NCBI GenBank assembly: GCA_014058105.1
Contig: JACGCM010001659.1
Span: 5,515,001-5,579,000, forward strand
Source of the DNA: Kingdonia uniflora
Taxonomy: Eukaryota; Streptophyta; Magnoliopsida; Ranunculales; Circaeasteraceae
DNA length: 64,000 nt
Direction of reading: 5' to 3'
A model generated the notes under the pieces. It was not told the DNA's origin. It did not search any database and saw nothing but the letters and a program-made list of their open reading frames with translations. A program made the translations under genes and the position numbers. Shown in pieces: positions 1,655 through 64,000 of this stretch; positions within the stretch are counted from its first letter, which is position 1, and the number at the start of each line of letters is the position of its first letter.

Positions 1655-20880
<19,226 letters not shown>

Positions 20881-49115: not shown

Positions 49116-50249
49116 ACGGGATTTTATATTTTTTAATAAAATGTTTATTTTCAATTTTTAATTTTATGTCTTCCAAAACTAATTTTTCTAGGGCTTGAGA
49201 TATTTGAGAGAAGCGAGAATTCAATGAAAGATTAAAAAAGAATTAAACCTTGAATTGAATCAATTATAGAATTTTCAATTTTTTTTTTAATTTGAAGAGC
49301 TTGAGGGATTTGAGCTTAAAGTGCTTTGATACGTAATCCGAAGCAAGGCGTTGCGAGAATGAAGGGTGTTGCGAGAACAGAGGATTAACTATGAGAATAG
49401 TGAGTAAAGATAGGTAACCACAGGACACGCTTATCAAGTTTGTAAGTGATTTAGATTTGTATAATTCTTTCTTCATAGTGGATTTTAGTTGTCGAGGATT
49501 TGACAATGACCAATGGGTTGCTACTACGAGAAAAGTTTCTCACGGGGTTAATATCACGTGTCTCTGTGCTTGTTGATTATTGCTTATTGCCACTAGATTA
49601 TATGATCAAATTGAATTAAGCTAGGGTTTCATTATTGGACAATTGATTTCAAGGATTATCGACCTAGCCTGTGTGACCTAATTATTCATAATTGATTAAT
49701 CTCAATGACTCTAACATTTCAATATGGAATTGAAAATAAAGGGGTATAGATCCTACTGGATTAATATGAATATCATTTTTAGGCTTTTAGAGGCACCATT
49801 TGTAGCATCATACTACTAGTGGCAATGATGTCCTTACTTCACCACTTTCAATATGGAGGTGTGAGGGTTTATGTGAAAGATATTGTTGTTAAGTTATAAT
49901 GAAAACATATAGTGTTGAAGATAAATTGACTATAATTTGTGGCGATCCACAAGGTTATTACTTCATTACAAACTGAAACGACCTCACTACAAGTGTCTTA
50001 TATCGAATAATCGAAACCTGAAAATATCAAATATATAGATATAAAAGTTTACCATTTCTCCATTATACTAAAAAGAAATATTATTGGTGTTATTTAAAAA
50101 AAATCTAGTTTCAATATATATATTTTTTACTTTATATGTAATAAAATAATATATGATGAAATCTTTATTGGGAGAGGATCTGTGGCCACCCTCCCTTATG
50201 ACACCCAATAAATCACCTCCTTAGACCCACACATCAAGATGAGATGAGT
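49116..50249. other. No gene seen
   Basis: AT-rich sequence with no supported ORF. It may belong to the 3' LTR side of the Tat element, but no LTR edge could be fixed. Confidence 0.3.
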
Positions 50250-51067
50250 GGTTGATTTCAAAATGGGGTAACCTGGTGACGTGGTTGTTACCAGGTCAAC
50301 CAGTTTTTACCAACTTGTTCTTTTTTTGGGTTTTCAACTCTCTTTCTCTCTCTCAACAATTATTTTTTACTTTTACTCTCTCTCTTTCTCCCCCTCAAGA
50401 CCAGAGTTTAAACCCTAACTACGAACCAAAGTTTCTTTAATTTTTCTCTTGCTTCTCCCTCTCCCCCCTCCCTCAAGAACCAGACAGTTCTTAGTATGCA
50501 GTGACTAAAATTGTGATCAATCTTCTGAAAATTTTAAAGTTCTTGATTTTGCTGTTCTAGTCGGAGGCACGACCTTCTCCTCTATCAATTTCAGGTTTTA
50601 TTTGGGTTTATATGATTTCACTCAAGAACAGAGTTTTTAGGGTTTCTATAATTCTACTCTTGCTTGAATTTTATACGATTTTGGGTGGTTGTTTTATTTG
50701 TGTTGGTAAAACCTATTCAAAGAATCCATACATTTACACGATTCTAAAGTAATTGTTCAGATTATTGTGTTTTGGGCGGGTGTTTTTCTGGTTTGAAATT
50801 TGGAACCATAAGTTCAGCTCTAACAAAAATTATATTCTCTGGTAGCAAATCTGTTTTAGTTATGTGCATGTTTGTTGAACTTGATGAAACTGATTAGTTA
50901 GTATGTATGCATTAGAATTTTGGCTATTTCGTTACTGCTGGATGTTGTTGTGGTTTTGCAAAATATATTTACAAAAAGAAATTGCAGTATTTGCCAAGTT
51001 ATAGTAGCTACTAACAGGCTATGCCCAGTTTATTAATCTTAGTATGTTATCGTAATGTTATAGGAAA
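50250..51067 (+). promoter_or_regulatory. CT-rich leader and first intron of the PMD gene
   Basis: 50330-50480 is rich in CTCTCTTTCTCTC and AAACCCTAACTACG words, typical of plant 5' UTRs. It is followed by about 0.5 kb of T-rich intron-like sequence ending before the ATG at 51068. Position suggests the promoter and leader of the plus-strand PMD gene. This is inference. Confidence 0.35.
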
Positions 51068-51246
51068 ATGGTGCATACGAAGTCTTTAAAAAGAGCCTTT
51101 GGTTCTTCTTTTGAAAATGAGGACAAAGCAGAGAAAAGTAGAATGAAGCTGTCTATATTGAAAAAAACTGTGGAAAAAAAAATTGTACATAAAAAGACTT
51201 AAGAGAAAATGGCAAGAAATCCGTTGCCTACAACCGAGACTAGAAG

Positions 51247-51580
51247 TGATAGTAACTATATTGCGGAAGCTATTAAACTAAATTCGAAATAAAACTCTCT
51301 CGTTTATTAATCTCTTTCAAGCTCTCCCTCTACAGATCACTCTTAAATCGCGCTAATTATATCTAGAAGGCCAAAGCCTTTTCTCACAAAAACTCACCAC
51401 CTCCTTAAACCCTAACTCCCCATCCCTATATAAAGGATGAGAATCCTTTATTCTCTCCACAAATCAAGTTCCAAACAATTATCCTACTAATTAAATAACT
51501 AAACATAAAATAAATCTAAATTATAGAAAGACTCTGCGACGTGGAGAACGACCGTTTGTAGACGACCCCACGACCTATCA
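51247..51580 (-). repeat. 3' LTR of the gag-only element
   Basis: 334 bp. Compared with the other LTR it has about 60 extra bp near its end (GACTCTGCGACGTGGAGAAC ...) and GGATGAGAATCCTTTATTCT in the middle. It ends CCCCACGACCTATCA, like the fragment at 18318. Confidence 0.9.
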
Positions 51581-51592
51581 ACTCTCCCCTGC
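51581..51592 (-). other. Polypurine tract of the gag-only element
   Basis: The minus strand reads GCAGGGGAGAGT directly before the 3' LTR. Confidence 0.75.
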
Positions 51593-51614
51593 TACGAAAA
51601 ATTTGACCACGAAT

Positions 51615-53988
51615 TTAGGGTGAATGATAGCCTTCCTCTGGTTCTGTCATCACAATCTTCACGTCATCCTCATCCCACGCTTGTTGTACCATGTCCGTCA
51701 TATGATCCCGAAACTTCTCTGTAGGCAGCGCAATGTGCTTTTTAGTATTAGGATACTCACGCCTCATGTGACCAGTCTTACCGCACCCAAAACACTGGAT
51801 TCCACTATTGTTCCCCATTGGACGTGCCCCTGCTATCGTAGTAGGCGTCGGAGTCGTGAAAACTAACGTCGTAGCTGGGATTAATGTCCTGAATTTATCC
51901 TCTGCACGTTTTGCTATTTCTACCGCCTCAGCTACTGAGTAAATGTTGACCATTGTCAACTCATCTTGTATCTTCTTAGTGAGCCCAGGTTTGAAGCTGC
52001 TAACCTTTTGTGCCTCTGTCTCCGCAGTAGCTACCCGAGAGGAAAATAAGTAAAATTCATTTGCATATTCGTCAGCATTTTTTAGTTTTTGTCTCAGTCC
52101 CTGCAAACGAGTAAAGCTGTCTTCCTCGTAAGAACGCGGAACAAAACGATTGACCAACTCTCTCCGCATTGAAGCCTAATCTGTAATGTACTCTTGACCC
52201 GAATTCTACCTCATTTTTTGAATATTGTCCCACCAGTTAAGCGCATACTCTGTTAGCTTTGTCTCTAGCAGCATTACTGATTTGGGGTCTCCGTATCGTT
52301 TGTACGTTAATATCTGATCAACTCGACTAAGCCATTCCATAAACCCGTCTGCATCAGCTTTCCCATCGAGCTCAGGTATATTTAGTTTAACATCTTGTCC
52401 AACGGTTCGTATAGCAGTAATGACAGCTGAAGCAATCTGGTCGCCCCGATTAGTATCCTGAGAACGTCGACCCCCAATACCCGAATCATTGTGAAACCCA
52501 TCACTGCGGATACTTGTCAGTGTTGATTTCGCGCCCATGCCCACGTCGTTCATGAACCGGTATATATCGATCTGTAAAACCCTGATTAATTTCTCCGTTG
52601 TCACCCCAATACCTGTGTTCTTCTCTATCCGTTCTCACAAACCCAAACCCAGATTGTCGTTGTTGATTCTGTGAGACAAACTCCCTCTATGGTACGAACC
52701 CGGTTACTGCCGTCGAAGTATTATGTAGAGTATGAGGAGAATTCGACTCGTAGCCTAGCGGTGCCGTTTGGGGTATATATCGCCCCTATTTTCTGTCAGC
52801 GGTGGCCTTAGTGCCGTTGTATTAAACGCTGCTGTTGGTTGCGTTGTCGTTGACGGTGCTGGAAAATCCCTATTACCTGATGCCACAATTGGTGTTGTTG
52901 TCGGCGCTGTCGTGGATACCGTTTCTATTATCGGTAGTGCTATCGCAGCTGTAAGTAGAGGTACCCTCATCATTGGGTCTATGGACAAGGACAGAGTTAT
53001 CGTCAGTAAGGTATTCACTGCCGTGGTCGACGACGTTGTAGAGGGACCCCTTTCTCCTTCTCCCCCGATCGCAGTCTCTCTTGGGTATGGTGAAGGGAGA
53101 TGTAATGATGATAGGTTTTCTTCATTTGGGTTTAAGTGAGTGGTGCTAGCCCGGCCCAGAAGTAAAGTTGGGTTTAAGTTAGGCAAATGGGATTGGGCTG
53201 CAGAATCTGAAGTCCCAACATGACCCACATGGGCTTGCCTTAAGTACCCCACACTTGTGCCTTGCGTGCCACTGAGCAGTGTGCCATGCCCGATGTCATC
53301 TGTGCCTGCCCCTGTACTTGCTCCTGTGCCCTGCATGTTAGTAAACAACGTGTCGTGCACACGAGGAAAATTGGCCTCCCCCTCTCTGCGATTCTGGCGA
53401 TTATAGCCTATCCCCTCGTGATCCAAAATGATCTGATCTGCCGGCCTTCCCTCCAATCGTCTAAGAATCATCGAGATTCCTTGGGTGGCGCCGGTGGTAA
53501 CGTCATTGGTTGTCGGTGTTTGGCGGTGATCTCTTACGCAATTTTCTTCGATCTCGACGAAGCTCTCGTTAATGCGGAAGTCAGCAAATTTGTCGACGCT
53601 TTCAACGTTGATTTCCAAGGAGGCAAAAGTATTGGATTGTCGAGTACCGCGTTGTTCGTTATCCGAATTTGAAATTTTAGGATAGATTTGGGGAAAAATT
53701 GTTTCTTTTTGTTGGGCTAGTTGGATTAATTCCTGTATTTCTGCTATAGCGCATAAACGCACCCATTGGTAGACCACGTCCTCTACCCCTTGTTACGTTT
53801 TCCACGTTGTCATGATCTCCCTCGCTTTGTTCTTTCTCAACACTAGGGTTATTTGTGGAGAGGGTAAGAATCACCGCCATCATAGCGTCCATCTTGTTTA
53901 CCATTAGAGTGTTAGCATCCTCGAGACTTGCTAGTCGTTCGCTTTGCGTTGGTTTCTTCGCGGCTTTCCTTCCTGAAGCTTTTTCCAT
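51615..53988 (-). pseudogene. Ty3/gypsy gag remnant
   Basis: Starts MEKASGRKAAKKPTQSERLA at 53988 with a short coiled coil. Then comes a long, low-complexity Thr/Pro/Ser linker (53777-52755) in another frame. The retrotransposon gag domain follows: KLNIPELDGKADADGFMEWL, TEYALNWWDNIQ, then VNRFVPRSYEEDSFTRLQGL and KIQDELTM. The zinc knuckle reads CFGCGKTGHMRREYP, where the last Cys is replaced by Tyr. At least three frame breaks. Family: Ty3/gypsy gag by the WW..I and RF/L.G..S.E.Y motifs. Confidence 0.85.
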
Positions 53989-54030
53989 TATAAATATCTT
54001 TGAAAAGAAAAAAAAATCCAAGAATCTTGT

Positions 54031-54045
54031 GGCTCTGAATACCAA
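54031..54045 (-). other. Primer binding site of the gag-only element
   Basis: The minus strand reads TTGGTATTCAGAGCC, two bases from the 5' LTR. It is close to the initiator-Met-tRNA type TGGTATCAGAGCC with one extra T. Confidence 0.75.
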
Positions 54046-54047
54046 TT

Positions 54048-54299
54048 TGATAGTAACTATATTGCGGAAGCTATTAAACTAAATTCTCTTGTTTATTAAT
54101 CTTTTTTAAGCTCTCTCTCTACAAATCACTCTTAAATCGCGTTAATTATATATAGAAGGCCAAAGCCTTTTCTCACAAAAACTCACCACCTCCTTAAACC
54201 CTAACTCCCCATCCCTATATAAAGCCTCAAATCAAGTTCCTAACAATTATCCTACTAATTAAATAACTAAACATAAAATAAACCCCACACAGCCTATCA
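54048..54299 (-). repeat. 5' LTR of the gag-only element
   Basis: 252 bp. Same start as the left LTR, shortened by internal deletions, ending ACACAGCCTATCA. Confidence 0.9.
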
Positions 54300-57285
54300 A
54301 GAAGAGAAGTAGAGGAGATACGAGTGGCAAAGGAAGTAGTTAAAACACAAACCACAAAACTTATTGAGAAGACTAAAATAATTAATTTGTCTAGAAGCGT
54401 TAAAGATTATGAGGATGCCGTTGATTTTGGGGCCCCATATACTGGGGCCAATAGTGTTGACGATCTCCTTGAGAAGCTTGACTCTCAAGGGTGTGGGCAA
54501 TCAGATAAAAGAGTCACTTCAGAGGATAATGAGTCTAGTAGAAAAGAAGATAATTCTGCCGAGGTAGAGGGAGCATCTTTTGAAGGAGAGGGGAAAATAG
54601 CAAGTGATGTTGGCAAGGAAGTTGGTGGGAAAGGGGATGTGGAGAAGAAGGGGGATGCTGATGATGTATCCGAAGAAGAGGGAGATGGAGAAGATTCTGC
54701 GGAAGAGGATGGTGATCAAGAGGAAGAGTTGGAGAGTCTAGAGAGGGAAGAAGATGAAGTAGGAGATGATGATAAAGTTGTAAGCGTAAACGATATACAA
54801 GATGAGGAGGTGGTGGATGATAACGAGGTTGCCTCTATGGCCGAGAGTGAACCAATGGATCCGGCATCCTTGCCCAACATTCCTGACGAGGGGACGTAGC
54901 TACAGCTCCTGACAAGGCTGTTCTACCTCTCCAAAATCTTGGCGAGGATGATGGTGGCAACACCAATGTTGGAGATGAACAAGTTGGAGATCCTTTGTAG
55001 AGACTAGAGGGCCGCTTCCGAACCCTCCTGCAGCGGTGGAGAGTGGTGCTTACCCTCTAGACCGGAGTGTGCTCCTCCATTAGAAGGAACATCATGCCAA
55101 ACACATTATCGACGGGCTAGTAAGTATCCTAGCTTTGTTGAATTACATTATTGAGGTTTTCCCCCCATATATATGAACAATTGTGTGTGACTTATGATTT
55201 TTTCATTTTCTGAAAGTATAGTTTGGAAATTTCATATTACATTACCAGTGTAACGGAATATGAATGTTTTCGTTATGACTGTTTATAATTCATGTTTTCC
55301 ATTACCATTATTTCAAAATATTATATTTCGTTACTAAAGTGGCTTACATTTTGTACAATCTTAAAAAAATTTAGCATGAGTTGAGTCCACTGAAATGTCA
55401 CCACCACCCAATCAAGTGAGATTTATGCCTAGAGAATAAAGATGTCAGATACCAGGTGATGACAGTGGGTTTGGGGCGTCTAGGTGAGATTGCATATGAT
55501 CACCACAAAGGATCGTTAATCATTACCTTTGTTGAGTGTTGGCATCGTGAGACCTGCAACTTTCATTTCAGTTGTGTGTGGGGGGGAGATGACTATCACA
55601 TTAGAGGATATGGTAAAGTTTGTTGGGCTGGCGGTGAAGGGCAAGTGTTTATAGGAGATTGGTAAGCCAGATTCTGCCATGAAGGTCTTTCGTGATCTGC
55701 TTGGTTTAACTGAAGAAGATTTCATTGTTGCTGAATCTAGCACGCAGGCTGCAACAATCAGAATTTCATGGCTCCAAGAGTTCTTTTGGAGAAAGTTAAG
55801 GAGGTAAAAAAAGAAGGACAAAAAAGGGAAGAGTAAGGTTGTCGAGGAAGAGGATCCTCTGCCAAAAAGGGGAAGGGCAAGAAGACAACCGTTATCCTAG
55901 AAGAGAAGTCACTGCCTGGTACATCAAAGGCTTATCTTTTCTATTTAGTGAGAAGTTTGCTTTTTCTGGAAAAGACCGAGGCCTACATATCTCCGTAATA
56001 CCTAGAGTTATTCAAGTCTTTGGAGAAAGCGGGAGAATATGCCTGGGGAACTGCTACTCTTGCATATCGCGAGATGAGCTCGATATGTTCATACGAAGGG
56101 AAACAACTTGTAGCGTTCACCACTCTTTTGGAGGTATCCGAATCTGAACCATTGTTTGTTATGTTATAAACCTTCCAAACATATCAAGACTAATTTTTAT
56201 TTTCCTGCCCTGATTAACAGTCATGGATTTATTCCCATTTCCCGAAATTACCTTATGTTCCAGAACCTGGCCCACGTGAAAGCCAAGAGTACTATACCTT
56301 GTGGAGATCAAAGAAAAATGTTAGGTTTAATGCTGAAATGCTTCAAGAGATTCGTTAAGCTCTCGATGACTACTCCATCGATGATGTAAGTAATGAAATC
56401 TTGAATCTATTTAATATTAATTGTGTATTTATATAACTATCTTATTATATTATCCAATCTACAGGTTATTTTTGATTTCTATGATAATAGCATAGAGGAG
56501 GATGCTGATGTCACTCTGGTATCTTTGTTTATTGGATTGCTGCGATGCCCCGACTGTGTTATCCCATACTTACCAGGCCGTTGCACTCGTCAGCTCGGGA
56601 GGGTCCAAGGTGTTCTGGAGAACCCACCTTTCACACCTGTAGTACTTCTAGGAATAAGTGTGAATAAACATTATAAGGTAACTTATGAATGGACCGACAA
56701 ATTCTCGAACGGGAAATGGGTAAAGAATATGTTGAAAAAAAGTGAAAAAGGTGCATGCATTAAGAAAGGCAGTCCAACCATGACTGAAGCTTGCCCTACC
56801 AGGTACAAGTTAATATCTATTCCTCGGATATACCCACCTAGGCAAAAATAGGTAGATGGAGAGATGCAAGGATGTGATGTCGGTCAGTCGAGTAAGGGTA
56901 CTGATTTGTAAAGGCTGAAAGACGACTTCTAACAATATAAACTTTAGAAAGAGAATGAAATTAGAGAGCTTAGAGATGTGGCTGCTAAATTGAAGGAGAA
57001 GGTGGGTTCTTTTTATGTTATTTTGTTTGTTCTCTTTTTCTTATTTTTTTAAACTGTTCAACATGAGTGGGTATACATGTATTTTTGAAAGCAAAGTAAC
57101 ATAACTATGTTGTTTTTGTTACTTACTAACAGAAATCTGAACTTCCGAAACCTCTGTGTCGACATTTATGTTTTTTGTTAATGGATTACTACATCAAATT
57201 TAAAGAATTTGACAACTAACATAATCTTATCTCTACACTATAGGAGAGGGAGTATGTTGCTGATCTCCAAAATTGTAGAAATGAG

Positions 57286-58235
57286 TTGGAGCGACTGAAG
57301 CAGATACTGGTGGAAAAAGAAAACAAGCTGAAAGTAGCTCGAGAGAATCTATCGGCCTTGGAGGTTGTAGTGGAACACTTGCATGTAGCCCTACCTGTGA
57401 AGGATATGAAGTTTCGGGAGATGCAACGAAGGTGTAATGATCATAATGAGAGAGTGGCTCGACTAAAGGTCGAACTGGCACAAGCCAACGCATGTGCCAA
57501 GAAAGCAGAAGCTGGAGAGCGTTCGAGGAGAGGGGGGAAGGATGTTCAAATTCCTCTAGTCCGAGGGGATGTAGTGAGTTTATCAGGACGAATTAGAGAG
57601 CTGTCAGGTGATGTAGCTCGAATACAGGGACATGTGCAGAGAGGTAATGCAAGCTTAAAAGAATGCCAATAGAAGTTGGATGCTGCTCTTATTAGGGAGA
57701 AAGTCCTGGAAGGGAAAATTCGGGAAAAGGAGATGCTGATGAAGAAGAAAGATGATTTATTAAAAGATATTTCGGCTAGGGAAGAGTTGAATGCAAAAAA
57801 TTAGGAGACTTCATGCTCAGATGGTGGACCTAGAGGTCAAAAACTTGGCTGAATTAGCTATATGTCAAAAAATTGGAAGAGAGTATAGCTTTTGATGCTC
57901 GGCTAGACTTGGAGCTGATCCATCAGAAGAAATTGTACGCTAATTTGGAGTCACGCCTCGAGAAGTTGAGATTAAAATTTGCAACGATGATCGTATCCAA
58001 TGCATCAAGTTCAGACCCATTAAAGCCGATTGTTGCATATTTTGTAGAAGAAGTAAAAAGACTTGAGTTAGAACGAGATACCTTGTTCAAAAGTCTGTCG
58101 GATAAGGGATGCGTTTGTGGAGTGAATATAGATTGGGAGAACTGTATGCCCTTTTTGGAAACCCATTTAGGCTCTCGACCTGCTGATCTGATAGAGCAGG
58201 GCAGAACTGCTGTAATCTGTGAATTGAGAGTTTAA
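57286..58235 (+). pseudogene. Coiled-coil C-terminal part of the PMD gene
   Basis: Two long ORF pieces. 57286-57672 (starting MERLKQILVEKENKLKVA) and 57873-58235 (starting MEESIAFDARLDLELIHQ) are rich in Leu, Glu, Lys and Arg with heptad spacing. The stretch between them (57673-57872) continues the coil with stops (REKVLEGKIREKEMLMKKKD). The protein ends VICELRV at 58235. Three separated coiled coils suggest an oligomerising tail. Confidence 0.65.
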
Positions 58236-58349
58236 CCTCTTGATGACGGGGAAACTGCTGTTGACACCTCATCAGCAGAAAAGAATCCATTGTAATATGA
58301 ATTTGACATGAAAAATAAATTGTATCTGTCGCAAACACATTGAAATAGA

Positions 58350-58860
58350 TGAAAGCTAGTATAACCTTTGCCTTATCTTGTGTCTGGTAGGGTCTTTGAT
58401 ATAAAACAAGTTTTTATACTTGCACCAATCGCTGAGGCGAGTTGAGGCAGTCGAATTAAGTGACTTTTGATTTAACTGAAAGAATGTTAAAGACATTAAA
58501 AAAGATGAAGGCTAGTATTATCTTTGCCTTATCTTATGCCTGTTAGAGTTATTGGTATTAAACAAGTTTATACATTTGTTTCAATCGTAGAGATTTAGTA
58601 GAGTTAGCCAAACTAAGTATTATCCTTGATTTAACTAGTATAATGTCCCAAACAAATTAAAAAAAATAAAGACTAATATTATCATTGCTTTATCTCTTGT
58701 TTGGTAGAGTTTTTGATGTGAAACAAGTTGCTGCATTTGTTCCAATCGCAGAGATTTAGTAGAGTCAGCCAAACCAAGTGTTATCCTTAATTTAATTTGT
58801 ATTAGATCGATGGAAAGCTATTATTATCTATGCTTTGATCTATATAATGTGGTTGAATCT
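58350..58860. repeat. Tandem repeat of about 155 bp in the Tat 3' spacer
   Basis: Four starts near 58352, 58508, 58670 and 58812 (last partial). Each has CTAGTATTATCTTTGCYTTATC, then GTTTGGTAGAGTTTTTGAT, AAACAAGTT and CCAATCGCAGAGATTTAGTA. Such repeats are typical between integrase and the 3' LTR in Tat-lineage elements. Confidence 0.85.
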
Positions 58861-59051
58861 ACGTAAGTAGAGAGATGTTGTGAAAAACTTGGAGGTTTCA
58901 ATCATAAGTTCATAATTTACATTGGATGGAGATGAATATCTCACTTTTGGAATTGAAAAACAAAAGAAAAAAAACTAGAGTAGTAAGACGCTTAACGATA
59001 GTACCGTTTCAGTCGCCTAGTGTTCTAAGGATTTGAAATGAGGATTTCCTC

Positions 59052-61850
59052 TTATGTCATAAGATGATATGATCCCAGGCCTGAGAGACATGTGATAATG
59101 AATGGACCCTCCCAGTTGTCGGTTAATTTTCTAGCGTGAGGCTCTTTGAGATGTTGAGGAATTTCTCTGAGGACGAGATCATTATTTTGGAATGTACGAT
59201 TTCGGACTCGGTTGTTGTATGATATGGCTAGCATATGATGATATCGACCTAGGTTAGCGATGGGGCATTCCCTGGTTTCGTCAATCATATTGAGGTTGTA
59301 AGCCAATTCAAACTCGTTTTCCTTGTCAGCCAACTCATGATCTCGAACTGGGTGATGATATTTGGAAGGAATGACAGCCATAGTGCCATAGGCAAGGAGG
59401 AATGGAGTACATCCTGTTGATACTCATAGAGTGGTAAGATATGCCCATAGGACATGAGGCAGTTTGTGAACCCAATTCCCTTTTTTTATGGGAGTGAAGC
59501 CTTTTTTTGAGTCCATCAACGATAGTTTTGTTGGTGATTTTGGCTTGGCCATTGCCTTGATGATAGTAGGGATTGGATGGTGAGTGGATGATATTGTGTT
59601 GGTTGAGGAATGCGACGATTTTTTCTCCAACAAATTGAGACCCATTATCGATGCAAATTAGGTAGGGGTACCTAAACTGTGTGATGATGTGCTCCCAGAT
59701 AAAAGAGATGACCTCTTCTTCTCTGGTTTGACATAGAGGAACTGTTTTTACCTATTTTGCAAAATAATTGATAGCTACGAGTAGGTGATGGCGGTTACCT
59801 AGAGAATTAGGGAATTTGCCGACGACATCAAGTTCCTATCTTTTGAATGGACAGAACACCTTGCTTGCATGAAGCTCGAGCGCAGGGGCGGGTATCATGT
59901 TTCCATGTCGTTGGCAGGTGTCATATCTACGTGAGTATTCTTCTGTTTGCTTGCGCATGATAGGCCAGAATACTACTTGTGTAATAGCTCTGTTTGCAAG
60001 TGATCGACCTGCGGCATTGGAGCCACAAGTCTCATCATGTAATTCGTGGAGCATTTCATCTGCTTTGGATTTGAAGAGGCATTTGAGATAAGGCCCTGTG
60101 AGGGAAAGACGGTATAGCGTACCATTCTTATTTGTGCAGTGCTTCGAGTTGTTGATCAACTATCGGCGCTCTTTTGGATCATCTAGAAGTGGTCTATTAC
60201 AGCTATTGTCGACGCCGAGGTAGGCTAAGAAAGGCTTTCACCAATCGTCGTCTCTCCTTTATCGCCTTCAGTGTTGATCGTGCATACCGAAATGTGATCA
60301 ATGGTGGGGGTTGAAATGATTTTGATATGGAGATATCGAGCTTTTGTACCAAAGACCCCAGTCAGATATACCAAGGAATCGGCGTGTCTGTTTTCACCCT
60401 GAGGAAGATAATCGAGAGTTGCTTTCGCGAACTTGCTCATCCTATCTGCAACGAGGGCTGCGTATTCTATCATCTTCCCATTCTTCTTATATTGCTCAGA
60501 GTAGTGGTGGACGATGAGTAGTGAATTTGTATAAACTGAGAGTTCGGAGACTTCGAGCTCAAGAGCAAGATCGAGTTCATGAATGAGAGTTTCGTATTCA
60601 ATAACATTATTTGAGGCCTCAAAATCCAAGCGGATTAATTTCTCAATTTTGTTATTGGAAGGGGTAATCAATATGATTTCGATTCCTGACCCTGTGGGTC
60701 CTGCTGATCCATCCGTGAGTAGTCCCACCCTTTCTTCATAATCCATTCAGCTCGCTTGTCAAATGGTTTGGTGGGTGGACTTTAGAGATTTTTTCTTCTG
60801 TAAGGTCAGGATTGTGCTATTCCCACTCGAGATCTTCCACTCGAAAATCTGCGAGAAAGTCGACAACGGCCTGACCCTTTTTAGAATGACGTTGCTTGAA
60901 CTTGATATTATGCTCTCCCAAACTGACGGATCACTGCTGCACTCTTCTTAATTTTTCTTTTTTAGACATAACTTCTCGAAGTGGGTAGTTCGTCATGACT
61001 TTGACTGAATGAGTTTAGAAGTAGTGCTTAAGTTTCTGTGAAGTGTAGAATAGAGTGAGAAGAAGTTTCTCAATTTTAGAGTACCTCGTCTCTACTGGAG
61101 TGAGAGTCTTGCTGATGTAGTAGACGGGCTTCTCGATTTTCCCTTCAAGGCGAATGAGAACCGAGCAGAGTGAAGTATCAGTAACTGCTATGTATATAAT
61201 CAGTTCCTCATTATCTACTGGGGTGCTCATTATGGGAGATCTCCCCAAGTAGGTTTTGAGGTCCTAAAAGGCTGCTTCGCATTCTGGTGTCCATATAACC
61301 TCTGTATTTGGCTGAACCTTTCCTTGTTTGGTACAACCGCGGAGTAATAAGAATAGCCAACGACAGCGTTCTGAAGATTTAGAAACAAAACGGTTAATAG
61401 CGGCAATCTTGCCGGTAAGTTTCTGAACTTCTTTTGTTGTTCTTGGAGAAGGCTTGTTGAGGAGAGCCCGAATCTAATATGGATCGGCATCAATCCCTTT
61501 CTTGCTGATGAGATGACCTAAAAATGAGCTAAAATGGACCCCAAATTGACATTTATCAAGATTGAGACGCATTCTGTAAGATAAAAGGATATTGAATATA
61601 GTGCTGAGATTTGAGATGTGATTGGCTGGCTGTACGCTCTTGCACAAGAGATCGTCGATGTAGACTTCAGCAACTTTCCCTAGATGTGCCTTGAATATAG
61701 TAGTCATCAACCTTTGATACATGGCACCTGCATTTTTGAGTCCAAAGAGCATGACTTTGTAGCAATAAAGACCTCTCTCAGTGATGAAAGTTGTCTTTTC
61801 TTGATCTTCTTCCAGGAGTGAAATCTGATTGTACCCCAAAGCAGCGTCTA
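59052..61850 (-). pseudogene. Ty3/gypsy (Tat lineage) pol: RT, RNase H, second RNase H, integrase
   Basis: Minus strand. RT (61850-61474): LGYNQISL, FGLKNAGAMYQRL and the catalytic YIDDLLCKS, then LNLDKCQFGV. The N-terminal RT half is missing because of the insertion at 61851. First RNase H (61248-61015): KPVYYISKTLTPVETRYSKI. Second, plant-type RNase H (60746-60225): LLTDGSAGPTGSG, NNVIEYETLIHELDLALEL and YLPQGENRHADSL. Integrase (60159-59052): zinc region LHDETCGSNAAGRSL and CQRHG, core LDVVGKFP and ICIDNGSQF, but NGQAKITNKT where the catalytic Glu is Lys. Several stops. The extra RNase H marks the Tat/Ogre/Retand group. Confidence 0.88.
60225..60746 (-). pseudogene. Additional (archaeal/plant-type) RNase H of the Tat element
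   Basis: Uninterrupted 173-codon ORF starting MDYEERVGLLTDGSAGPTGS. It has the first catalytic Asp in TDGSA, Glu in EYETLIHELDLA and a third acidic residue in YTNSLLIVHHYS (Asp replaced by Asn), then NRHADSL with the fourth. The Asp to Asn change may disable it. Diagnostic of Tat elements by its place between RNase H and integrase. Confidence 0.8.
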
Positions 61851-64000
61851 TGTCACGCCCTCAAAATTGGCTTCTTAATAAACTATTAAGGACGTGAATT
61901 CTGAGGTGTAACGTCCTAAAGATGAACCCCCAAAAGATGTACTACAATTTAAAAAAAATCGTAAATACATCTACAATACTAAGAAACTACGCAGTGGAAG
62001 AAAATCTAAAAGAGATAAAAATGATAAATAATACCACAAGGATAGCCAGAACTCTAAAAGATGCAAGTCCAGCTTGTTCCAACTACTAGTATCGCTACCA
62101 CAACAATTCACATGAAAAATTATATATGCTCAAGGCGTCAACAAACAATGCCCAACAAGTACAAATATCCAAGGTCATAAGACATGATAGACCAAGATAA
62201 ACACATAAAAATGACTTGAAGAATCCAACAGAATTATAGGAGAAGATCAACCAAGCTACGAGTCCTAAAGAAGGCGGTCTAAGTAAAACTAATATCCTAT
62301 AAATATATATAAATGATGTAATGCTTTGAGGAAATGAGGTTCAATTATTAATGTTATTTTTAAGCGTCGGCGCCAACCGGTATTATAAATAATTATAGAG
62401 TAGTATTAAGTGTGGGGGGATAACTAACAGACGATGTACACAAGGTCACTTTTAATTCAGTAGGACTACACTCTCGCACCCTTCTGTCCTCAACAGAAGC
62501 GTATCCCTTATTGGCGAGCCAGGGATTGGCGGATTCCTTTTTAGTGAGCCAGGAATTAGCGAGTAAATCACGGGATCAAGGTGGTCAAGGATTTTCAACC
62601 TACAGGTCTAAAACCTGATTCATTTTCACTTTTAGGGATCTATGCCCGCTGGGAGTATTCACAAAGAATAACAAAGTCGACATGTAACTGGGGAAGTAAT
62701 TTAGGGACTTACAACCCGGGAACACTGATAAACAGTTACCTCATATTTTGTTTAGGGACTCGAACCCAAGGACCCTGACAACATAGCCCTACTGTGTACA
62801 TGACTCTAAGTTATCCTATGCATGAATGAAAGGAAGAAGTTTGAATCCTATAAGAATCAAATGATATGTCTGCTCCTGCCTAATCAATATCTGGGACTAT
62901 ATCCAAAGACCTACCGCCCTTACAACCAGATGATCTATCTACCCTCATTTAATAACAAGTGGGGACTCTATCAAATGAAGTAAAGCTCTAACATCCAATG
63001 CTATCTGTCGTAACATGCCCAATAAGTGCGACTATATCAAAAAGAAACCCTAAGCGTCAAGGCGAATCTAAGTCGCGTACTACTGAATCATGGAAAATCC
63101 ATTATCTTAAATGGTTGTCATAAAAGACAAACCAAGGGATCATCTAAGTTCTAGAATAAAGGACTCGCCCAAATGTCCTAGTGATAAAGAACTCTCTTAC
63201 TCCACTCGCGCCTTAGAATACAAATCTTACAATGAGTACTATGTACAACACAAGGCCGCCTTGTCCAAAATGGACATAATCGATGTCTCGAGAATTCTTA
63301 TTATTACTAATGTAATATCTAGCAAGAAAACACCTAGATAACTACTTCTCTCATAGACCATATAAGGTACTTGTATGCTTCACAACCCATGTCATTTGTC
63401 ATATCATGCCATCAATATATATATGGAAAATCGCCTTAAACCAAACAAGTATCGATAAGCTATTTACTGAACTATAAAGTCTTAAGGTAAAGTTTAGTCC
63501 AAACACTCCATCCCATAAGTAAGATAATTAAATTATCGCCGTGCCTTAAATAATCAACATTATACTATAATCATCCCCAATACAACTCATCATTAACTGT
63601 TAGAAAATATGTCTACTGTATAACCATCTTTTGACTCTTACGACTCCATCAAACTAACCTTAGATAGGAATATTATCCAGACTATGATCCGCCTTCAATT
63701 ACTACTCCTTGGTATATGAATTGAGGAGAACAAGATGACTAAAGAGCCATAAAGAAAACAGCCTTATTCAGAATGTGAAGTAATACTACACTAAATCTAT
63801 GAAGAATATATGATGTTCTCTAAACCATGATAAACTCTTATAAACTTGTCCTTGGTGCATACTTATCGAAATGTAAAACCACTTCCCATTTAAAGAACTC
63901 AACAACATGCAACCAACCTGATCCAATACATAAGCTAAATCCAGCTACACATTTGATCTTTAACTATATACATGAAATACACTAGCTTATCAACACATAG
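61851..64000 (+). repeat. TGTCACGCC repeat, copy C, runs off the window
   Basis: Begins TGTCACGCCCTCAAAATTGG exactly where the Tat RT reading frame stops, so it was inserted into that element. The 5 bases before it are GTCTA. It shares the start and the phrases GGACTTACAACCCGGGAACACT and GCAGTGGAAG with copies A and B, but is more diverged. No ORF of note (65-76 codon ORFs are chance). The far end and TSD partner lie outside the window. Confidence 0.6.

What the first reader, a model, noticed from the sequence alone, without database searches (positions are those of the whole stretch)
51068..61850. Antisense PMD-coiled-coil gene downstream of a Tat-type pol
Seen: minus-strand RT-RNase H-second RNase H-integrase, then a tandem-repeat spacer, then a long intron-containing PMD gene on the opposite strand whose end (58235) faces the integrase end (59052). 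Known: some Tat/Ogre elements carry extra antisense ORFs between pol and the 3' LTR, and PMD proteins occur both as transposon passengers and as host silencing factors. Inference: this PMD gene is an antisense cargo ORF of the Tat element, perhaps acting against host silencing. The added acidic N-terminal region and three coiled coils may be a distinct architecture.
Basis: partly seen in the sequence, partly recalled or inferred. Interest (0 to 1): 0.8.

Follow-up and report, generated by a model that had tools for sequence, protein, structure and literature searches.

The report
Two unrelated transposons fused end-on
What looked like a new gene carried by a plant retrotransposon is most likely a chance junction of two decayed mobile elements, a DNA transposon bearing a plant-mobile-domain gene and a broken Tat retrotransposon, so it is ordinary genome debris.

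Summary
Window 50170-57261 belongs to a MULE DNA transposon family of the same genome (most likely Kingdonia uniflora). Sister copies carry acidic N-terminus + PMD on one strand and a MULE transposase (PF10551, 2.6e-19) on the other, with TIR-like ends in the two copies whose right end was reached. From 57259 rightwards the sequence is an abundant Tat retrotransposon (coiled-coil antisense ORF, tandem repeats, integrase, two RNase H domains, RT). The switch is sharp: MULE copies stop matching by 57261, Tat copies start at 57258-57263, 3 bp shared. Of 40 scored genome matches to a query across the junction only the window itself spans it. None of 9 PMD copies holds this Tat's coil; none of 11 Tat copies holds the PMD within the 1.5 kb fetched on that side. 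In one sister PMD copy a Tat relative sits as an LTR-bounded insertion with PMD-MULE sequence on both sides. The coiled-coil half is the Tat's own antisense ORF (Retand-like, a known kind), joined to the PMD exon in frame by chance. Both halves are broken. 51247-54299 is a separate gag-only LTR element.

The parts
50170..51246 (+). Left end and 5' part of the PMD-bearing MULE copy; terminus GGGAGAGGATC..., inverted matches at the right ends of two sister copies
   Evidence: Left edge at 50170/50171 shared with 3 of 9 upstream loci, L013, L025, L027; the others start further in. Inverted matches in L026 1059-1124 and L042 343-410
51247..54299 (-). Nested gag-only LTR element (LTRs 51247-about 51515 and 54048-54299, TG...CA), TSD AGAAG at 51242-51246 and 54300-54304
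   Evidence: LTR pair and TSD; Retrotrans_gag just at its cut-off (24.3 vs 24.1 bits); 3 other ORFs of it without a family; site uninterrupted in L011, L013, L025
54324..54899 (+). Acidic N-terminal ORF of the MULE PMD gene
   Evidence: tblastn matches in 8 of 9 upstream loci of PMD copies (not L017), 41-75% identity; no Pfam family
55589..56103 (+). PMD exon region, frameshifted and with stops
   Evidence: Two overlapping tblastn matches in different frames, 3 and 2 stops; sister exons are PF10536
56537..56848 (+). Later PMD exon, open in this copy
   Evidence: 70% identity to L018 piece; PF10536 only 12.8 bits
57259..57261 (.). Junction MULE / Tat with 3 bp (GCT) shared; in frame, EREYVA|DLQNCR
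57259..58235 (+). Truncated coiled-coil antisense ORF of the Tat element, broken at 57672
   Evidence: About 86-88% identical in 11 of 11 fetched Tat loci; contiguous with repeats and the integrase end in 10 of 11, L030 only to 58423
58333..58802 (.). About three ~157-161-bp tandem repeats of the Tat pol-3' region
59052..61850 (-). Tat pol fragment: integrase, second RNase H, RNase H, RT; unrelated, inverted-repeat-bounded sequence begins at 61851
   Evidence: continuity with the coil shown only as far as 59825 in Tat copies; the rest is assigned by unbroken pol order

Best explanation
A 5' half of a decayed MULE DNA transposon that carried its own PMD gene (acidic N-terminus + PMD, opposite in strand to the transposase) was joined by an illegitimate break-and-join event, sharing 3 bp, to an internal fragment of an abundant Tat (Retand-like) retrotransposon. 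The Tat fragment keeps part of its antisense coiled-coil ORF, its tandem repeats and the later part of pol. The MULE has lost its transposase half. The join happens to be in frame, so it reads as one PMD-coiled-coil gene. Shown: the two families, the sharp switch, the uniqueness of the junction among scored matches, the MULE identity of sister copies. Inferred: that a Tat insertion followed by a deletion produced the join, and that the Tat fragment lost its 3' LTR (this family's LTR was not identified).
For: PMD family: 9 copies fetched with about 10 kb on each side match parts of 50170-57261; 8 of 9 continue beyond the 57261 position with family sequence that the window lacks, L016 stops at 56496. 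That part encodes a MULE transposase on the other strand. Tat family: 5235 first-look candidates, 40 scored; 11 of 11 fetched loci match from 57258-57261 rightwards, 10 of 11 through the repeats into the integrase, and share their own coil sequence to the left (in L033 interrupted after 36 bp). Junction query: 1 of 40 scored places (the window itself) spans; 39 begin at 57258-57263. PMD in 0 of 13 Tat loci by protein and by DNA; coil in 0 of 9 PMD copies. C1583: a Tat relative with 86.5% identical LTRs inside a PMD-MULE copy, MULE matches resuming at L010 8990-8994 on both sides, PMD-region DNA on the far side at 83.8%. The lost MULE half and the Tat coil's own upstream part are not in the window or the next 7 kb.
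Against: Only 40 of 1604 junction candidates were scored, though a copy spanning both sides should outrank half-matches. The Tat loci were fetched with only 1.5 kb on the PMD side (two with 6.1 kb more). The junction is in frame (1 in 3 by chance). One assembly only, so an assembly error cannot be excluded. Tat-type relatives of the antisense domain, at 24-32% identity, lie within 10 kb of 4 of the 9 PMD copies (L012, L017, L020, L027): L012 is an LTR-bounded insertion, the other three were not resolved.
Confidence: 0.93

Rival explanations
1. The PMD gene is an antisense cargo ORF of the Tat element, as PMD ORFs are in many Ogre elements, perhaps countering host silencing.
For: PMD occurs in 57% of Ogre elements (PMC6317226, passages); orientation and position in the window fit; the junction is in frame.
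Against: 0 of 11 Tat copies carry the PMD in the stretch fetched; the junction is unique among 40 scored matches; the PMD unit has a MULE transposase and TIR-like ends; in C1583 PMD lies outside the LTRs of a Tat relative.
Confidence: 0.02
2. The junction is recent exon capture: a Tat lineage acquired PMD exons from the MULE and uses the fusion as a new antisense protein.
For: In-frame join of the two coding stretches.
Against: No second copy among 40 scored matches; PMD exon frameshifted with stops; coil ORF broken.
Confidence: 0.02
3. The junction is an assembly artefact joining two repeats.
For: Both sides are repeats; only one assembly is available.
Against: It lies within a 6.6-Mb contig; the neighbouring gag-only insertion has a clean duplication.
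Confidence: 0.05

Closest known systems
MULE DNA transposons carrying a plant mobile domain (Ikeda et al. 2017, PMC5418596, passages read)
   Same: MULE transposase and PMD in one repeat unit; TIR-like ends; multicopy
   Different: Described there as fusion proteins of PMD-C with the transposase in grasses and Amborella; here the PMD is a separate reading frame on the opposite strand, and falls outside the MAIN-like rows in two small trees
Retand-type Tat retrotransposons (Vicient 2025, PMC11963269, abstract and passages read; Neumann 2019, PMC6317226, passages read)
   Same: Second RNase H between RNase H and integrase, antisense ORF and tandem repeats between pol and the 3' end
   Different: Transposase_28 match of the antisense ORF is weak (16.8 bits, cut-off 26.2); here only an internal fragment, LTR not identified
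Gag-only LTR elements (TR-GAG type; name recalled, from no call)
   Same: LTRs, gag, no pol domain in the 4 ORFs scanned, 5-bp TSD
   Different: Not compared further

Membership tests
MULE (Mutator-like) transposon with PMD | MULE transposase domain in the same repeat unit | tested here: met
   PF10551 2.6e-19 (69.9 bits, cut-off 27.6) in L024 and 1.4e-7 (32.3 bits) in L010; just under the cut-off in L026. Met by sister copies; the window copy has lost this half
MULE (Mutator-like) transposon with PMD | Terminal inverted repeats | tested here: met
   About 67-69-column inverted matches (74-81% identity) between the window left end and the right ends of the 2 copies whose right end was reached; ends are complex and partly palindromic; the other 7 copies were not tested to the end
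MULE (Mutator-like) transposon with PMD | 8-11 bp target-site duplication (length recalled) | not tested
   Window copy lacks its right end; the C200 right end is fused head to head with another MULE end; C1897 was not examined for it
MULE (Mutator-like) transposon with PMD | PMD domain | tested here: met
   PF10536 2.3e-21 (L018), 3.4e-16 and 2.7e-13 (L010), all above cut-off; window's own pieces below it
Tat / Retand retrotransposon | Two RNase H domains, the second between RNase H and integrase | tested here: met
   Order on the minus strand RT, RT_RNaseH_2 (61018-61263), RVT_3 (60225-60746), integrase (59836-60159 and 59377-59751)
Tat / Retand retrotransposon | Antisense ORF with Transposase_28 between pol and 3' LTR | tested here: inconclusive
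   Antisense ORF present; PF04195 16.8 bits (L040) and 17.2 bits (P0003), below the cut-off 26.2; no match in L041 (2 pieces), in the other 6 of P0002-P0008, or in 7 pieces of more distant Tat relatives
Tat / Retand retrotransposon | Tandem repeats between pol and 3' LTR | tested here: met
   58333-58802, also in 10 of 11 Tat loci; the LTR itself was not found
PMD cargo of a Tat/Ogre element | LTRs bracket pol and PMD together in several copies | tested here: not met
   0 of 11 Tat copies with PMD in the stretch fetched; junction unique among 40 scored; LTRs of a Tat relative exclude PMD at C1583

The most novel reading that the evidence does not exclude
The MULE family itself may be a further, independent case of PMD carriage by DNA transposons: a stand-alone PMD gene with an acidic N-terminus, convergent with the transposase, in an early-diverging eudicot, with a PMD outside the MAIN-like clade to which the known MULE captures are said to belong.
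Probability: 0.35. Interest if true: 0.4.

Novelty: new member of a known kind. Interest (0 to 1): 0.18.

Why it matters
It removes a false lead (a PMD anti-silencing gene carried by this Tat element) and shows how two repeat families can fuse in frame and mimic a new gene, a trap for annotation. It also points to a PMD-carrying MULE family in Kingdonia that could be used to ask how often transposons took up this silencing-related domain.

Tried and rejected
PMD as cargo of this Tat: rejected. PMD as a unique host gene: rejected, since it is multicopy. The PMD unit as an LTR element: rejected, since a MULE transposase and inverted ends were found and no RT among the 88 segments scanned (one segment matched Ty3_capsid at 0.0026, which I take to be an insertion in the L022 copy). 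An ORF downstream of PMD (L010 5861-6355, L022 5837-6373) that I took from memory for an OTU-like protease: no Pfam or fitting PDB match, claim dropped. Transposase_28 in more distant Tat relatives: 0 of 7 pieces. A co-location control found no PMD place within 20 kb of 82 Tat places, nearest 30 kb; it is weak, because the 82 are a small part of more than 5000 candidates. A genome search with the pol part alone did not complete, so its assignment to the same Tat family beyond 59825 is by pol order.
Full report
What was checked. The window lies in a 1.0-Gb genome held as G000, most likely Kingdonia uniflora: a Kingdonia protein, P0001, lies on a contig of exactly the length of C1437, and P0083 on one of the length of C354. 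The reported features exist: RT, two RNase H-type domains and integrase domains on the minus strand, tandem repeats, and acidic, PMD-like and coiled-coil stretches on the plus strand.

The left half is a MULE. A search with 55000-56000 gave 43 matches including the window; the seven best other places have 78-86% identity. Nine copies were fetched with about 10 kb on each side. They match parts of window 50170-51246 and 54300-57261. In 8 of 9 the family continues past the position of 57261, for up to about 5 kb, with sequence that the window lacks; L016 stops at 56496. That stretch encodes, on the opposite strand, a MULE transposase: PF10551 at 2.6e-19 in L024 and 1.4e-7 in L010. The left edge at 50170/50171 is shared by 3 of 9 upstream loci (L013, L025, L027), and inverted matches to it lie at the right ends of the two copies whose right end was reached, C200 (L026) and C1897 (L042); by these positions I reckon those copies at about 10.8 and 12.3 kb. 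PMD is well supported in sister copies and decayed in the window: two frames with 3 and 2 stops. The acidic N-terminus belongs to the same family (8 of 9 upstream loci, not L017).

A third element is nested in it. 51247-54299 is an LTR element with TG...CA LTRs, a 5-bp duplication AGAAG and a gag match just at its cut-off; no pol domain was found in the 4 ORFs scanned. The site is uninterrupted in L011, L013 and L025.

The right half is a Tat retrotransposon. A search with 57265-58330 gave 5235 first-look candidates and 40 scored matches, 39 of them other places at 84-88% identity, nearly all over the full length. Eleven were cut out with 1.5 kb on either side: all match from 57258-57261 rightwards, 10 of 11 through coil and tandem repeats into the integrase, L030 only to 58423. 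To the left they share their own sequence, which continues the coiled-coil ORF; in L033 it is interrupted after 36 bp and then resumes. Two copies were followed 6.1 kb further (L040, L041). There the antisense gene holds a region with a weak Transposase_28 match (16.8 bits, cut-off 26.2). Retand elements typically have such antisense ORFs, and about half have tandem repeats there (PMC11963269, abstract and passages). L041, 6 of 7 related Kingdonia proteins and 7 pieces of distant Tat relatives gave no such match, so this membership stays open. The LTR of this Tat family was not identified, and pol beyond 59825 is assigned to it by unbroken domain order only; the search that would have tested it did not complete.

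The junction. MULE copies L010, L014 and L024 read ...GTTGCT or ...ATTGCT and then leave the window sequence; most Tat copies read ...GCTGATCTCC after a different left side; the window reads ...GTTGCTGATCTCC. Three bases are shared. A 400-base query across it gave 40 scored matches out of 1604 candidates: only the window spans; the other 39 start at 57258-57263. PMD or acidic sequence matches 0 of 13 Tat loci (11 copies) by protein or DNA, and the coil matches 0 of 9 PMD copies. A weak control agrees: among 117 PMD places and 16 of the PMD-MULE family, none lies within 20 kb of 82 listed Tat places. The lost MULE half and the coil's upstream Tat part are found neither in the window nor in the next 7 kb.

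A sister case shows how the two kinds meet. At C1583 a Tat relative with 86.5% identical LTRs (L043 2243-2918, L012 8299-8981) sits inside a PMD-MULE copy; MULE matches resume on the far side at the same L010 position (8990-8994), with near-identical 5-base flanks (CTAGG, ATAGG; the exact 3' LTR end is uncertain by a few bases). PMD-region DNA lies outside the LTRs on both sides, 56000-57253 of the window being matched at 83.8% on the far side. This relative is distant: its antisense domain is 27% identical and its pol 63-65% by DNA where it aligns. Three other PMD copies (L017, L020, L027) also have such distant domains within 10 kb; these were not resolved.

What is known. PMD ORFs are found in 57% of Ogre and Transposase_28 in 23% of Retand elements (PMC6317226, passages); PMD was the most frequent non-canonical domain in a survey of plant Gypsy elements (PMC9289625, passages). 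PMD-C genes were captured by MULEs in grasses and Amborella as transposase fusions (PMC5418596, passages). Here the MULE PMD is a separate reading frame opposite to the transposase and, in two small trees, is split from MAIN-like PMDs by a 100/100 branch. Those trees use partial sequences with under half of the columns filled, few references and a midpoint root; in the second, L049-L051 fall among the MULE copies with weak support. Searches (4 papers; 7; 10) listed no paper on such a MULE in Ranunculales by title or start of abstract, and one search (6) none on Kingdonia's transposons; these are narrow searches.

Verdict. Nested and truncated transposons. The proposed Tat cargo gene is not supported; the MULE family is a new member of a known kind.

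Noticed in passing
window 51247-54299: Gag-only LTR element with clean 5-bp TSD nested inside the MULE copy.
   Followed up: partly
G000 C1801, C568, C1897:1716057, C397:2816903, C492, C2294:398703, C1215, C1578 (three fetched: L046-L048): Eight places with similar PMD coverage (six 1-322, one 1-318, one 89-322) that may be a recently amplified family related to a MAIN-like gene (L044); 7 of 8 have 1-3 stops, C1578 none. Relatedness shown only for L046 and L047 by tree and seen for L048 by eye. Carrier unknown.
   Followed up: partly
window 61851-62053 and L009 7497-7705: Inverted 85% repeats bounding about 6.85 kb next to the cut RT; possibly another DNA transposon.
   Followed up: no
window 2019-2288 and 7460-7729: Direct repeats 94% identical, about 5.4 kb apart: possible LTR pair.
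   Followed up: no
L026 900-1200: Two MULE ends fused head to head, an imperfect palindrome of about 292 bp (78.6%).
   Followed up: partly
P0003 (GIB67_009438): Annotated Kingdonia protein that joins the Tat antisense domain to PPR repeats; probably a chimeric gene model.
   Followed up: no
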